Part shown: piece after piece, positions 544 to 5,300 of the stretch
Numbering within the stretch: position 1 is the stretch's first letter
How the letters are laid out: every line of letters starts with the position of its first letter
Assembly: GCA_002790315.1 (NCBI GenBank)
Contig: PFUW01000016.1
Location: 21,622 to 26,921 of the forward strand
Length of the DNA: 5,300 nt
From: Huberarchaeum crystalense [NCBI: Candidatus Huberarchaeum crystalense]
GTDB lineage: Archaea; Huberarchaeota; Huberarchaeia; Huberarchaeales
Reading direction: 5' to 3'
The notes under the pieces: generated by a model
What the model was told of the DNA's origin: nothing
Databases searched by the model: none
The model's input: only the letters and a program-made list of their open reading frames with translations
Position numbers and translations under genes: made by a program

Positions 544-571
544 CAAAAATCTACTAACGATAAGATTTTTG
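544..571 (-). terminator. Inverted repeat spanning the uS9 stop codon
   Basis: A perfect 9-bp inverted repeat, CAAAAATCT and AGATTTTTG, flanks a 10-nt loop that contains the uS9 stop codon (556-554). On the transcribed strand the second arm ends in a five-U run and more T-rich sequence follows. It may be an operon-end terminator or an RNA-stabilising hairpin. The stem is mostly A-U pairs and so weak, which keeps confidence low. Confidence 0.35.
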
Positions 572-997
572 CTGTTTTTTTGCTCTTGCTTTGTATCCAA
601 AATGCCTTGGTTGTTTAGCGCGCACGTCAGAAATAAATAAATATCGAGCATACTTGCTATAAATTTCTTTAAGTTGCTTTGCTTCGATGGTTGGAATAGA
701 TTTAAGCAAAAGTTGGCCTATTGCTGTGCGAGCTGCCTGAGCTTGCCCCATAACACCACCTCCAACAACAGACACATATATATCTTTATCTTTTAAAAAA
801 TTATCTACAATCTCTCTGCCAACAAATATTGGTTCTAAAATTATTTTAGATATAATCTTTGGAGTTAAACTCTCAGCAAGTACATTGTTGACAATTACTT
901 TTCCTGAACCCTTTTTCAAATAAGTGCGCGATACTGCTGATTTTCGTTTTCCAGTTCCTATATTTGTTTTTGTTTTTTTAGAGTGTTTAGCAATCAT
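554..997 (-). CDS. rps9: 30S ribosomal protein uS9
   Basis: uS9 is a head protein of the small ribosomal subunit whose C-terminal tail reaches the P-site tRNA. The 147-residue product shows the family core: NIGTGKRKSAVSR near the N-terminus (12-24), the signature GGGVMGQAQAARTAIGQLL (79-97), and a basic tail ending K-S-Y-R with the universally conserved terminal arginine (147). The 'RAKQPRHFGYKARA' segment (126-139) is typical of the archaeal/eukaryotic version. It is slightly longer than most archaeal uS9 proteins (about 130-137), with the extra residues in a lysine-rich N-terminus. The ATG follows the eL41 stop after one nucleotide. AAAGG inside the end of the eL41 gene can serve as its ribosome binding site, and coupled translation is likely. 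It is the last gene of the operon. In many archaea uS9 follows uL13; here uL13 is not adjacent. Confidence 0.96.
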   Translation of the reverse strand: MIAKHSKKTKTNIGTGKRKSAVSRTYLKKGSGKVIVNNVLAESLTPKIISKIILEPIFVGREIVDNFLKDKDIYVSVVGGGVMGQAQAARTAIGQLLLKSIPTIEAKQLKEIYSKYARYLFISDVRAKQPRHFGYKARAKKQQKSYR

Positions 998-998
998 T

Positions 999-1133
999 TT
1001 ATAGCGCCTTTAGTTTGAGCAAACGTCGCTTTCGCTTTCTCGCTCTGATTCTTTTTTTGAGCCATTTCCATCGCATTTGTCTTCTTTTGCCTTTTCGCAC
1101 ATTTTTCTTCCATTTTCGCGGTTTTGCCTTCAT
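999..1133 (-). CDS. rpl41e: eL41-like ribosomal mini-protein, 44 codons (25-residue core from internal Met)
   Basis: eL41 is a tiny, nearly all-basic single-helix ribosomal protein that sits at a bridge between the subunits in archaea and eukaryotes. The reading frame runs from ATG 1133-1131, overlapping the eS24 stop as ATGA, to TAA 1001-999. It gives 44 residues of which about half are Lys or Arg. From the internal Met20 (ATG 1076-1074) the sequence is MRWKWLKKRIRARKRKRR followed by LLKLKAL. That is 25 residues, the usual eL41 length, and matches the family pattern M-R-x-K-W-x-K-K-R-x-R-x-x-K-R-K-R-R. The first 19 residues are therefore either an N-terminal extension or outside the real gene. 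The upstream ATG has the coupled position; neither start has a clear Shine-Dalgarno. It fills the space between eS24 and uS9 exactly, with 1 nt before uS9. I am confident of the core and unsure of the start. Confidence 0.8.
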   Translation of the reverse strand: MKAKPRKWKKNVRKGKRRQMRWKWLKKRIRARKRKRRLLKLKAL

Positions 1134-1567
1134 TTTGTGCTTATATTTGCAATAGTTTTGGTTGTTTGTTGAATGTCATTTGTTTTTTTGTTATCTTCAT
1201 CAATAGTATTTTGTTGAATGTCATTTGTTTTTTTGTTATCTTTATTAATAGTATTTTGTTGAATGTTGTTTGGCTTTTCATTATCTTTAATTTTATTTCT
1301 GGTTTTTATATAATCTTGCTCTGTTTGTTTAAGCGCATCTAAGGAAACATAATAATATAAAGTAGATAGCAAAGTACTCTGTCCAAAGTGTGTTTCCACT
1401 TTTCTCACAAGTAATTGCTCTTTTATCAAAGAGCTATCATTTGCAAGCAGATGATCAATAATACTTTGCTTTGACGGAATTGGCTCTCCTTTAAAAAATG
1501 CTTTAATTTCAATTTTTTCTCTTTTAAGATTTGGTTCTTTTACTCTTGAAATAATATCTAATTTCAT
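1130..1567 (-). CDS. rps24e: 30S ribosomal protein eS24 with a repetitive C-terminal tail
   Basis: eS24 is a small-subunit protein found in archaea and eukaryotes but not bacteria. Residues 1-94 carry the family fold: an N-terminal strand MKLDIISRVKEPNLKREKIE, the PSKQSIIDHL helix (31-40) and the VRKVETHFG segment (54-62), matching the family's 'vVrki.t.FG' core, then the closing strand and helix. The usual archaeal protein ends near here at about 100 residues. This one adds about 50 residues (95-145) rich in N, Q, K, D and T, made of a 15-residue unit (N-D-I-Q-Q-N-T-I-x-x-D-N-K-K-T) repeated about 2.5 times. The tail should be disordered. The start overlaps the Spt4 stop as ATGA, and AAGGGT about 7 nt upstream (1579-1574) is a good Shine-Dalgarno. 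Its own stop overlaps the upstream ATG of eL41. The conserved glycines of the family signature after FG are partly replaced here (FGQSTLLSTLYYY). Confidence 0.92.
   Translation of the reverse strand: MKLDIISRVKEPNLKREKIEIKAFFKGEPIPSKQSIIDHLLANDSSLIKEQLLVRKVETHFGQSTLLSTLYYYVSLDALKQTEQDYIKTRNKIKDNEKPNNIQQNTINKDNKKTNDIQQNTIDEDNKKTNDIQQTTKTIANISTK
1154..1270 (-). repeat. 45-bp tandem repeat inside the eS24 tail
   Basis: A 45-bp unit is repeated in tandem, easiest seen as plus-strand GAATGTCATTTGTTTTTTTG beginning at 1171 and 1216, with a diverged copy starting at 1261. The two best copies (1171-1215 and 1216-1260) differ at only two positions. The period is a multiple of three, so the frame is kept and each unit adds 15 residues to eS24. 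Confidence 0.9.
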
Positions 1568-1764
1568 TTTGCTACCCTTAATGCATATTCACCTTTTAAA
1601 CTTGCGTGAATAATTTGAGCAAATACAGATTTAGATGCATCAATAATAAATAAATATCCTTCAAAATCAGATGTTAATTCCCGACCTCCACAACCCGGAC
1701 AAATCTTTTCAGAAACAAGCCGCTTGCAACTTTTGCATGCTTTAACTGCAACTATCTTATTCAT
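1564..1764 (-). CDS. spt4: Transcription elongation factor Spt4 (RpoE'')
   Basis: Spt4 is a small zinc protein that binds the NusG-like domain of Spt5; the pair clamps RNA polymerase on DNA and raises processivity. The product is 66 residues, normal for archaeal Spt4. The zinc ligands are C10-x2-C13 and C22-x2-C25 (ACKSC ... CPGCGG). After them comes the conserved FEGYLFIIDASKSVFAQ segment (34-50), which matches the 'w.G.viiidpe.S.iA' strand and loop, and the C-terminal GEYALRV strand. The ATG lies 8 nt inside the end of the eS8 gene, with AGAGGT about 6 nt upstream (1775-1770) as a clear Shine-Dalgarno; that supports this start despite the overlap. In many archaea spt4 sits beside the polymerase subunit gene rpoE' and near eS24. 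Here eS24 follows directly, but no rpoE' is present upstream. Confidence 0.94.
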   Translation of the reverse strand: MNKIVAVKACKSCKRLVSEKICPGCGGRELTSDFEGYLFIIDASKSVFAQIIHASLKGEYALRVAK

Positions 1765-2146
1765 TTTTTACCTCTAACAAAACACCATTAAGCACTGGTT
1801 GTTGCCCTGGTCTGCTTGTAATTTTTACATCCCCTAAATCTGTTTCAACTATTGCTCCTTTTGTAAGAATCTTATTTTTTAACAACTTAGGATTAGCTTT
1901 GTTGTCAACAAACGCAATTATTTTTGCTTTTTTATATGTTTTATTTTTTAAAAGAACATTGACTTCATCTATTGATTTTATCTTAATTTTTAAATTATCT
2001 CCGCGCACTTGCTGTTTTTTTAATAATTTGCGCTCTATGATCGTAGAAATTGGCGGGCGTCCTGTGCGCGCTTTTTTCTTTTTGCTGTGTGGTTTGTACT
2101 TTTTTCCTGTTTCAGTTCTCCCTTGGCGACCTTGATAAATTACCAT
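1757..2146 (-). CDS. rps8e: 30S ribosomal protein eS8
   Basis: eS8 is a small-subunit protein shared by archaea and eukaryotes. I chose ATG 2146-2144, giving 129 residues that begin MVIYQGRQGRTETGKKY, the expected eS8 N-terminus ('...wqGrs.rkptGgryr'). The longer frame from 2200 would add 18 residues with no family counterpart and overlap the RNase HI gene by 47 nt. The basic patch HSKKKKARTGRPP (20-32) is followed by the diagnostic C-terminal block ILTKGAIVETDLGDVKITSR (93-112) and PGQQPVLNGVLL (113-124), corresponding to the family's 'ItKGaiieTelG.arvTsRPGQdgvvna.l'. No strong Shine-Dalgarno is visible before the chosen ATG. The 7-nt gap from the RNase HI stop suggests reinitiation or coupling. 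The gene ends 8 nt inside spt4. Confidence 0.94.
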   Translation of the reverse strand: MVIYQGRQGRTETGKKYKPHSKKKKARTGRPPISTIIERKLLKKQQVRGDNLKIKIKSIDEVNVLLKNKTYKKAKIIAFVDNKANPKLLKNKILTKGAIVETDLGDVKITSRPGQQPVLNGVLLEVKNE

Positions 2147-2830: not shown

Positions 2831-4387
2831 ATGGTGCAATATGAAACAATAGCAAAGCTATTTCTTGCTGTTTTGCTGCTTACTATATTATTTTATATTA
2901 GTATAGTTGTTCTTGGTGTGTGGAAACCTGTTATGCCTTGGTCAGAATATATTGAAAAGTTTGCGATTATAGGATATACTAATGAAAAATATATAGAGCC
3001 AGAAAAAGAATTTAAAATTATAGTTGAGCCAAACCCAGATCTAACAAAATATAAAAACAAAAACTACCTTGATTTGTGGATATGTGTTGACAATGTTTAT
3101 CAATATTATAAACCGCTTTATGTTGAGAAAAAGGCAGATTATGCTTTTGTAGAACAAGAAAAAAGAGATTCAAAGGGTAACATTCATACTACAAATAAAT
3201 TTCTATATATGAAAATTTTTGCAGGGGAGGAGGACGGAGAAGAATATAAAGATAAAAGTGAGAAAGATAAAATAATAAACTATATTTTAAATATGAAAAA
3301 ATATTCACAAAGTGGAGAGTGTTATTTTACAGTTCCACTTGGAGGCAAGGCTGAAGGCCATTATTATTATCCTTGCAATGGAAATGATGGAAGCCCTATA
3401 ATTAAAAAAATATCTTCATCAGAATACAATGAATATAGCCTAGCCTTATTTGCAAAGTGGCTTAGTGTTGATTTTTTTAGCAGAACAACTTTGGTAGAGG
3501 ACTTTGATCGCAATTCTTCAATATCACCAAAGGATAATATTAAAGGTAAATGTTGGCCTGGAGATTGTGGAAAAAAATATTTTGATGTTAATGATAGTGG
3601 AAAAAAATTTGATTGTGATACAGCATGCAAAGGAAATTCTATCTGTAATGATATATGTAATAAAATTCCATCAAAAATTGTTAGGGGTGATACACCAATA
3701 TTGACTTCGCTTTCATATAAAGTAAACTCCTCAAGTGTTGATGACAGCCAATGCGTGCCTTATGATCCTGAAAAACAACTTAATTTTAATATGATGCTAA
3801 CAACAAAAGATAGCAGTGGAAGTAATATTCCACACGCAGAAGCATACAAACCTGTTTATGGACCAGTGTACATTTACTTTAGACTTTATGACAAAAAAAA
3901 AGATGAAATGACTCAATTATGGCCTATAAGTAAGGATTCAGCAATGTTAGTGACATCTGGCATGCCATATTCAAGAGATATGCCTACTGCTGGACTTATT
4001 CCAGGTATAATTCAATTCGCGCAAAAACGCGGGGAAAATGTTGTTCACCTTTTAGCTGCTATTCCTCACTCACCTTTTAATAAAGATTTTGATGTGACAA
4101 AAAACTATATAACAGCAAAGTTGCCGTTTGTTGTTAGTAATAGTAACTCCCAAACCTTTAAAGATAATTTTGGAAACAATTTAAGATATGGTAAAAAATA
4201 TGATGATGTTTCTTACATATCTCCAATGTGTGCAACAGGTTTTGGTAGGTTTTGGTATTATTCTACGATGATGCGAATTCCGCCGAGTGTTATGGGACAA
4301 AGCTCAAATGATAATTTTATTAAAAGTGATGATGGCTGCAAACACGAGCAATGGCTTACTGAGGATGGGTATTATAATTTGTGGTAG
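2831..4387 (+). CDS. Membrane-anchored, cysteine-rich surface protein of unknown function
   Basis: I do not recognise the family. The 518 residues begin with a short polar start (MVQYETIAK) and one hydrophobic helix (about 9-30). A long hydrophilic region follows, most likely outside the cell with the N-terminus inside. There is no lipobox and no classical class III (pilin) cleavage motif. The outer region has an acidic/lysine-rich loop (about 132-150, EEDGEEYKDKSEKDK) and a cysteine cluster, C241, C246, C262, C266, C272 and C276. Six more cysteines are spread along the chain (85, 164, 182, 308, 467, 503), twelve in all. DVNDSGKKFDCD (252-263) within the cluster resembles a calcium loop. The middle and C-terminal parts look like folded beta-rich sequence with many aromatic residues (e.g. 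PVYGPVYIYFRLYD, 341-354). It follows the 47-residue membrane gene and has a GGAG ribosome binding site. Likely a cell-envelope protein; its specific role is unknown. Confidence 0.85.
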   Translation: MVQYETIAKLFLAVLLLTILFYISIVVLGVWKPVMPWSEYIEKFAIIGYTNEKYIEPEKEFKIIVEPNPDLTKYKNKNYLDLWICVDNVYQYYKPLYVEKKADYAFVEQEKRDSKGNIHTTNKFLYMKIFAGEEDGEEYKDKSEKDKIINYILNMKKYSQSGECYFTVPLGGKAEGHYYYPCNGNDGSPIIKKISSSEYNEYSLALFAKWLSVDFFSRTTLVEDFDRNSSISPKDNIKGKCWPGDCGKKYFDVNDSGKKFDCDTACKGNSICNDICNKIPSKIVRGDTPILTSLSYKVNSSSVDDSQCVPYDPEKQLNFNMMLTTKDSSGSNIPHAEAYKPVYGPVYIYFRLYDKKKDEMTQLWPISKDSAMLVTSGMPYSRDMPTAGLIPGIIQFAQKRGENVVHLLAAIPHSPFNKDFDVTKNYITAKLPFVVSNSNSQTFKDNFGNNLRYGKKYDDVSYISPMCATGFGRFWYYSTMMRIPPSVMGQSSNDNFIKSDDGCKHEQWLTEDGYYNLW

Positions 4388-4526: not shown

Positions 4527-5300
4527 TTAAAGTGTGGGAGAATTTTGTGTGGTGCATTTTATAGGGGGGCCTACCCAATAATTAATATCCTCATTACCCT
4601 CATTATCAAAATACATATACAAATCCCCATCTTCAACTTTAAATGGATTATCATCATCACCATTATCATCACCACCATCACTTAATTCATTTGGATATAT
4701 AGTAACACTTTCATCATTACCAATTTTATCCATAATATTTAAAACACCAGAGATAGAGGGTCCTCCTTTTATATAAACATACTTCTTTAAAAAAAGCATA
4801 TAATCTTGACTTCCCGGATCGGCTGTATTTATCTTTTTTTTCGTAAGATCTATTTCTCCACTCAAATGTTCAAGAAGAAGAACAGCACAATATATATTTG
4901 GTTTAAATGAAATATTACCTTCACTCCCTACAATTTGTACTTTTGGATATTTACCACAATACTTTACATCATTAAGGTTAGCAGTAAGTTTATTACTATC
5001 ACTAGCAGTATAATTATTACTATCACCAACAGTATAATTATTACTATCACCAACAGTAGATACAATTTTAATTTTGTTTTGGCTAACATCAAACATATTA
5101 TCATCACCACCAACACCACCTATCAACATTGCTCCTCCTATTGCAATCGTAGCAGCAGCAGTTTTATAGGGTGATAATCTCTTTTTTAGAGGTGTTACTA
5201 TTTTTCCTATGTCTTCTAAATATACTAACAACCCCCCATAAAGCATATTAAGACGACAAAGTTCAGACATACGCTCTTCTTCTGTTTGTATTTTTTCTTG
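4527..5300 (-). CDS. Single-pass protein with acidic, repeat-bearing outer domain (partial, N-terminus beyond window)
   Basis: I do not recognise this protein. The frame is open to the right edge, giving 257 visible residues. An internal Met (ATG 5270-5268) exists, but the charged residues before it (QEKIQTEEER) look like coding sequence, so the true start is probably outside the window. Counting from that Met: residues 1-34 are amphipathic and basic; 36-55 are Ala/Gly-rich and hydrophobic (TAAATIAIGGAMLIGGVGG), a likely membrane helix of glycine-zipper type; the rest is polar. The polar part has an eight-residue tandem repeat VGDSNNYT (73-88, with a degenerate third copy to 96), a possible folded region with C105 and C128 (about 100-190), and an Asp/Gly-rich acidic stretch (198-217, DGGDDNGDDDNPFKVEDGDL). 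The sequence ends CTTQNSPTL before TAA. Three N-x-S/T sequons (N78, N86, N119) fall in the outer part. It converges with the 518-residue gene and is probably also a surface protein. Confidence 0.8.
   Translation of the reverse strand, partial: QEKIQTEEERMSELCRLNMLYGGLLVYLEDIGKIVTPLKKRLSPYKTAAATIAIGGAMLIGGVGGDDNMFDVSQNKIKIVSTVGDSNNYTVGDSNNYTASDSNKLTANLNDVKYCGKYPKVQIVGSEGNISFKPNIYCAVLLLEHLSGEIDLTKKKINTADPGSQDYMLFLKKYVYIKGGPSISGVLNIMDKIGNDESVTIYPNELSDGGDDNGDDDNPFKVEDGDLYMYFDNEGNEDINYWVGPPIKCTTQNSPTL
4991..5058 (-). repeat. 24-bp tandem repeat in the surface-protein gene
   Basis: The plus-strand unit TATTACTATCACCAACAGTA plus TAAT begins at 4991, 5015 and 5039. The copy at 4991 differs by two bases (CACTAG for CACCAA), and the third copy is cut short near 5058. 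The 24-bp period keeps the frame and encodes the eight-residue unit VGDSNNYT. Confidence 0.9.

What the first reader, a model, noticed from the sequence alone, without database searches (positions are those of the whole stretch)
999..1133. Overlooked eL41 ribosomal gene between eS24 and uS9
A 44-codon frame fills the space between two ribosomal genes exactly, with an ATGA overlap on one side and 1 nt on the other. Its last 25 residues match the eL41 pattern (MR-x-KW-x-KKR-x-R-x-x-KRKRR). eL41 is often missed by gene callers because of its size, and its distribution among archaea, especially small-genome lineages, is poorly charted.
Basis: partly seen in the sequence, partly recalled or inferred. 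Interest (0 to 1): 0.6.

Follow-up and report, generated by a model that had tools for sequence, protein, structure and literature searches.

The report
Stretched ribosomal protein eL41, small-genome archaeon
The tiny gene is real: it encodes eL41 (now also called eS32), a ribosomal protein that sits beside the decoding site, and in this archaeon it carries six extra residues at a joint that rarely varies, while the ribosomal RNA has changed close to the same spot.

Summary
The 44-codon frame at 999-1133 (minus strand) is an archaeal eL41/eS32 gene. All 10 PDB sequences it matched at E<=10 are eL41/eS32. It is the only match in its genome for profiles built without it, and none of 5000 shuffles scores as well. 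Similarity covers the N-terminal hook as well as the 25-residue core. Pfam's L41 model misses it, but that model also falls short on real archaeal eL41, so its silence refutes nothing.

Two things are unusual. The joint between hook and helix has nine residues; 142 of 168 other genomes read have three, and none of the 164 parsed has nine. The genome's 16S rRNA differs near the hook's site: U1404-A1497, A1405-U1496, U1516. A1405 goes with altered hooks (14 of 15 genomes, against 2-4 of 96), but after allowing for descent this is not significant, and U1404-A1497 also occurs with ordinary eL41. The eS24-eL41-uS9 order was seen only here among the loci examined.

In passing: in two archaeal families eL41 appears to start at AUA or AUC (21 of 21 genomes). 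Whether this copy is unannotated was not testable.

The parts
999..1133 (-). eL41/eS32 gene, 44 codons plus stop, ATG start
1104..1133 (-). N-terminal hook MKAKPRKWKK, 8 of 10 residues as in the archaeal eL41 of solved ribosomes
   Evidence: hook position in the ribosome from PMC7005279 passages
1077..1103 (-). nine-residue joint NVRKGKRRQ where most others have three (KGR type): six extra residues
1002..1076 (-). 25-residue core helix MRWKWLKKRIRARKRKRRLLKLKAL; R21 aligns with P. abyssi R15
   Evidence: R15 contact
554..997 (-). uS9, starts 1 nt after eL41; C-terminal KSYR tail
1130..1567 (-). eS24, ATGA overlap with eL41; C-terminal tail of 45-bp repeats
1564..1764 (-). Spt4 (RpoE''), ATGA overlap with eS24
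1757..2146 (-). eS8 (start chosen at the ATG at 2146; the open frame begins at 2200), overlaps Spt4 by 8 nt

Best explanation
The frame is a functional single-copy eL41 (eS32). It lies in a tight cluster, eS8-Spt4-eS24-eL41-uS9, and is probably translated by coupling to eS24 through the ATGA overlap (inferred; no clear Shine-Dalgarno sequence precedes it). The peptide is expected to sit as in Pyrococcus: the PRKWKK hook buried between 16S helices h27, h44 and h45 against modified bases under the P site, the MR arginine on the h45 cytidine, and the basic helix running on toward the aIF2-gamma site at the subunit interface. Identity and architecture are shown here by sequence; position and role are inferred from solved ribosomes. 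The six extra residues lengthen the joint between hook and helix; whether they fit a changed pocket (I give about 0.3) or are drift (about 0.5) is open. The confidence below is for identity and role as eL41.
For: Only eL41/eS32 among PDB matches of the peptide. 71-72% identity outside the insertion, hook included. Sole match in its genome with profiles that exclude it. Shuffle test 0 of 5000. The family is single copy: one match in each of the 115 of 242 archaeal genomes that match. ATGA and 1-nt packing between ribosomal genes. The h45 CCG cytidine and the loop GAA, contact partners in P. abyssi, are present in the genome's 16S.
Against: No Pfam L41 or NCBIfam hit. The best single-sequence E-value is only 0.021, the peptide being short and very basic. 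No close relative to show the frame conserved or under selection; no expression data. For the pocket idea: the eL41 and 16S contigs differ (C65, C31), so linking them relies on binning (contamination 0.07, similar flanking G+C); the hook-1405 link is not significant after allowing for descent (2 independent pairs for, 0 against, 2 without difference, p=0.5); U1404-A1497 also occurs in G051 and G114, whose eL41 has ordinary spacing; G194 has A1405 with ordinary spacing, and G103 and G141 have a +2 joint with G1405.
Confidence: 0.95

Rival explanations
1. Translation starts at M20 and only the 25-residue eukaryote-like core is made; the upstream part is untranslated or chance.
For: M20 to L44 is exactly 25 residues, the usual eukaryotic length (PMC7005279 passage). 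An in-frame GTG at codon 12 and the ATG at codon 20 exist.
Against: The hook MKxxPRKWKK matches archaeal eL41 at 8 of 10 positions, and the ATG at 1133 makes the ATGA overlap.
Confidence: 0.03
2. A chance or decaying open frame rich in lysine and arginine between two ribosomal genes, not eL41.
For: Short, basic frames give misleading matches; no curated L41 model matches it.
Against: Position-specific match far beyond shuffles; PRKWKK and MRWKW in the right order; only eL41 among PDB matches; sole match in the genome.
Confidence: 0.02
3. It is eL41, but the six extra residues are neutral drift in a fast-evolving lineage, unrelated to the 16S changes (compatible with the best explanation).
For: The lineage's 16S has a long end branch (0.6) and at most 68% identity to a sampled row. 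G103 and G141 have a +2 joint with G1405 and G194 has A1405 with ordinary spacing. G051 and G114 have U1404-A1497 with ordinary spacing. The tree test is not significant.
Against: Three residues are kept in 142 of 168 other genomes; the parsed exceptions are 14 FKK-type and 8 five-residue genomes, which form few clades in the tree. The 16S changes fall at or next to a base that the hook contacts in P. abyssi (numbering mapped by me).
Confidence: 0.5

Closest known systems
Archaeal eL41/eS32 in solved ribosomes (PDB 6skf, 6sw9, 9fny, 6tmf; Thermococcus and Pyrococcus, organism names recalled)
   Same: hook MKxxPRKWKK, MRWKW start of the helix, basic helix; 71-72% identity outside the insertion
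   Different: six extra residues at the joint; 44 residues instead of 36-37; located between eS24 and uS9
Eukaryotic eL41/eS32 (mostly 25 residues)
   Same: basic core helix
   Different: the window protein has the archaeal hook, which eukaryotic cryo-EM structures do not show (PMC7005279 passage)
bS22 of actinobacteria and mitochondrial mS38, said to occupy the same site (PMC7005279 passage)
   Same: occupy the eL41 site of the small subunit
   Different: not compared by sequence here

Membership tests
eL41/eS32 | Sequence homology to eL41 of solved ribosomes | tested here: met
   10 of 10 PDB sequences at E<=10 are eL41/eS32, best E=0.021; 71-72% identity to three of them outside the insertion
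eL41/eS32 | Match to Pfam PF05162 or an NCBIfam model | tested here: not met
   no hit. PF05162 is below cut-off (4) or unlisted (4) for all 8 other archaeal eL41s scanned, so I do not treat it as defining for archaeal members
eL41/eS32 | Archaeal N-terminal hook xxPRKWKK plus MRWKW helix start | tested here: met
eL41/eS32 | Three residues between WKK and MRW (usual, not universal, in the family) | tested here: not met
   nine residues; of 168 other genomes 142 have three, 14 have the FKK type, 8 have five, 4 were not parsed
eL41/eS32 | Single copy per genome | tested here: met
   one match in G000; the genome is rated about 75% complete
eL41/eS32 | Present in the ribosome between h27, h44 and h45 | not testable with these tools
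   needs cryo-EM or ribosome mass spectrometry

The most novel reading that the evidence does not exclude
eL41's hook and the decoding-site base pairs 1404-1497 and 1405-1496 of 16S rRNA evolve together. This lineage has a rebuilt decoding-site pocket into which the lengthened eL41 joint reaches, so that eL41 is a variable part of start-codon and tRNA control in small-genome archaea. A related suggestion: eL41 controls its own synthesis through poor start codons (AUA/AUC in two families), as bacterial IF3 does (recalled).
Probability: 0.25. Interest if true: 0.7.

Novelty: new variant of a known kind. Interest (0 to 1): 0.45.

Why it matters
The conservation of eL41 in archaea has been called puzzling and its distribution uncertain (passages of PMC7005279 and PMC9258230). 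This case suggests two reasons why it is missed: the Pfam model fails on archaeal forms, and some genes appear to have no ATG, GTG or TTG start. It also shows that the part of eL41 near the P site can change length in a genome whose 16S has changed nearby, so that eL41's proposed role in start-codon selection can be approached by comparison.

Tried and rejected
Pfam and NCBIfam as arbiters: set aside, because PF05162 fails on other archaeal eL41s. Using an eS24-uS9 neighbourhood as proof: not found elsewhere. Neighbours were checked only by phmmer (E<=1e-3) with six window proteins, within about 1.5-2.5 kb, in the 89 loci L032-L120, and eL41 by the narrow profile A1 in 29 other uS9 loci; divergent neighbours or eL41s could have been missed.

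Naming the organism: not achieved. The pattern scan of genome contigs may leave out the window's own genome, and the phylum search returned this genome alone. That scan, for WKK-(4 to 13 residues)-MRWKW, gave 54 stretches. On translation only L164 (Woesearchaeota, one extra residue) reads as an eL41 with a longer joint, and L140 as an eL41 of ordinary spacing caught in another frame. The pattern requires exact WKK and MRWKW codons, so it cannot find the FKK and most five-residue types.

One search's automatic start was wrong for the window (GTG at codon 12) and is superseded. One search scored L118 as one residue longer; one search places it (G196) in the FKK type. AlphaFold gives one helix, residues 6-43, which says nothing of the bound hook. 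The sigma-70 scan does not apply to archaea. The hook-1405 link failed the tree test and is kept only as a hypothesis. Rows dropped before counts: L117, L310 and L311 (weak, taken as false) and L309 (G232, truncated); L058 and L224 are the same genome and count once; genomes that matched but were not fetched are not in the table. For the tree, 45 of 52 16S rows were used: five under 1000 nt (G250, G114, G167, G020, G047) and two of one family (G332, G152) were left out.

Full report
Observation. The minus-strand frame 999-1133 is as described: 44 codons and a stop, an ATGA overlap with eS24 and 1 nt before uS9. The neighbours are uS9, eS24, Spt4, eS8, an RNase H and a SepF-like protein. eS8 and Spt4 overlap by 8 nt, Spt4 and eS24 by ATGA, so eL41 sits in a packed chain of five genes. 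The window lies in a 0.5 Mb, 74-contig genome rated 75% complete, the only one the tool returned for its phylum.

Identity. A phmmer search of 177,635 distinct PDB sequences returned 10 matches up to E=10, all eL41/eS32, best E=0.021. Alignment to three of them gives 71-72% identity with one block of six extra residues. Profiles without the window sequence find this frame and nothing else in its genome: E=0.013 with three near-identical sequences, E=9.4e-4 with 25 diverse archaeal ones. None of 5000 shuffles reaches its score, with or without null2 correction. A 14-row profile that includes the window matches 30 PDB sequences at E<=1, all eL41/eS32 or so named apart from one whose first name is 'Unknown 60S wheat germ ribosome protein 1' (also named L41). 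Pfam and NCBIfam give no L41 hit. But PF05162, a 25-position model, scores L037 at 21.9 against a cut-off of 22.3, lists three more of eight archaeal eL41s below cut-off and four not at all, so I do not count its silence as evidence against. Seven of those eight are called eL41 by my own profiles.

What is known of eL41. From passages of PMC7005279: in P. abyssi eL41 has 37 residues; [quoted passage not shown] R15 contacts ac4C1479; the C-terminal part meets aIF2-gamma; its phylogenetic conservation is called puzzling. [quoted passage not shown] Passages of PMC11724365 describe the renaming to eS32, the eukaryotic bridge eB14 and the hook. Passages of PMC3353972 map L41e to Eury- and Nanoarchaeota; one of PMC3655853 lists it in Nanoarchaeota; one of PMC9258230 finds it sparse in DPANN. 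So eL41 in small-genome archaea is not itself new. Library searches for eL41 with DPANN and for DPANN, decoding center and 16S rRNA listed no paper.

Distribution. With the 25-row profile 165 of 394 sampled archaeal genomes match at E<=0.01. With a profile that includes divergent members and the window, 115 of 242 match at E<=0.001, each once. Non-matches are not proof of absence: six of the genomes that first failed were later found to have eL41 or part of it (G104, G250, G019, G372, G389, G214, and also G159 and G356).

The joint. Among 169 genomes whose eL41 I fetched and classed (not all that matched), 142 have exactly three residues between WKK and the next motif. Eight have five (families f19, f55), 14 have an FKK-type hook (such as RFKKTxARQRWKW), four were not parsed (two of these, G008 and G224, keep the spacing with Y or R for the tryptophan by eye), and the window has nine. 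The insertion can be drawn as one block of six or two of three.

The pocket. The genome's 16S (contig C31) reads CCTATCA and AAGTTATAAC where the usual form is CCCGTCA and AAGTCGTAAC. In E. coli numbering, assigned by me from recall, that is C1404 to U with G1497 to A, and G1405 to A with C1496 to U: two pairs changed on both sides. The h45 loop is TGAA instead of GGAA (base 1516), unlike every other row that shows this segment. By the same mapping C1404 is P. abyssi C1378, which the hook contacts. Changed pairs are not confined to this lineage: G051, G026 and G114 also have U1404 with A1497; G051 and G114 have ordinary eL41 spacing, and G026 gave no eL41. The eL41 and 16S contigs differ; low contamination (0.07) and flanking G+C of 24-31% against 31% for the window fit one organism but do not prove it.

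Is there a link? A1405 occurs in 22 of 394 genomes and G1405 in 184 by exact 19-base patterns; the others have neither exact string. Of 15 A1405 genomes with a complete hook, 12 have the FKK type, one +2, one (the window) +6 and one, G194, ordinary spacing. Of 96 G1405 genomes, 92 have ordinary spacing, two +2 and two the unparsed hooks named above. Six A1405 genomes gave no eL41 and one (G232) a truncated one. On a 16S tree of 45 of the 52 rows held, these reduce to 3 hook changes and 6 changes at 1405; independent pairs go 2 for, 0 against, 2 without difference, p=0.5. The raw contrast is mostly one clade of 13 rows, so the link stays a hypothesis. The window's own place in the tree is unsure (long branch, nearest row 68% identical).

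Place of the gene. By the limited checks, eL41 was not beside uS9 in 29 other uS9 loci, nor were uS9, eS24, Spt4 or eS8 found in the loci L032-L120. In 7 of the 12 FKK genomes with A1405 it lies about 2-7 kb from the 16S decoding-site motif. Placing eL41 with uS9, whose C-terminal tail also reaches the P site (PMC7005279 abstract), could keep two P-site proteins in step; this is inference.

Start codons, in passing. In families f22 and f42 the codon at the homologous start is ATA (19) or ATC (2) in 21 of 21 genomes. A Shine-Dalgarno-like motif lies just upstream in 20, and 13 have no ATG, GTG or TTG in frame between the previous stop and the gene; the other 8 do have one upstream, in four cases an ATG five codons before, and could start there. 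CTG appears at the same position in three more genomes and ATC in one. uS9 in three genomes of these families starts with ATG, ATG and GTG. Bacterial infC, with its AUU start and autoregulation, is a recalled parallel; a search on it listed one paper, which I did not read. Searches for L41e with 'start codon' and for archaeal non-AUG starts listed 1 and 3 papers, not read for this point, so I claim no priority.

Verdict. It is an unusual form of a known protein, with an unexplained longer joint in a genome whose decoding-site RNA has changed nearby.

Noticed in passing
L059, L060, L070, L079, L086, L093, L097, L100, L120, L177-L188 (families f42, f22): eL41 genes have ATA (19) or ATC (2) at the homologous start in 21 of 21 genomes, a Shine-Dalgarno-like motif in 20, and no ATG/GTG/TTG available in 13. 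Resembles IF3 autoregulation (recalled) and could explain missed annotation.
   Followed up: partly
L175 and L271 (G000:C31, 16S gene): Decoding-site pairs 1404-1497 and 1405-1496 read U-A and A-U, and base 1516 is U, in this genome's 16S.
   Followed up: partly
L266-L270, L332-L334, L336, L337: Genomes in which one search found no eL41 have a different h45 stem (GTACCGGAAGGTGC or GTACGGGAACGTGC and the like) instead of GTAGGGGAACCTGC.
   Followed up: no
L262 (G114), L252 (G311), L253 (G051), L331 (G026): Other decoding-site swaps in archaeal 16S: U1404-A1497 in G114, G051 and G026, C1406-G1495 in G114, G1406-C1495 in G311.
   Followed up: no
window 1165-1299: Three tandem 45-bp units code a hydrophilic repeated tail at the C-terminus of eS24.
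   Followed up: no
window 2831-4387 (+) and 4527-5270 (-): A 518-residue protein with an N-terminal hydrophobic segment and a 247-residue protein, neither with a meaningful Pfam match.
   Followed up: no
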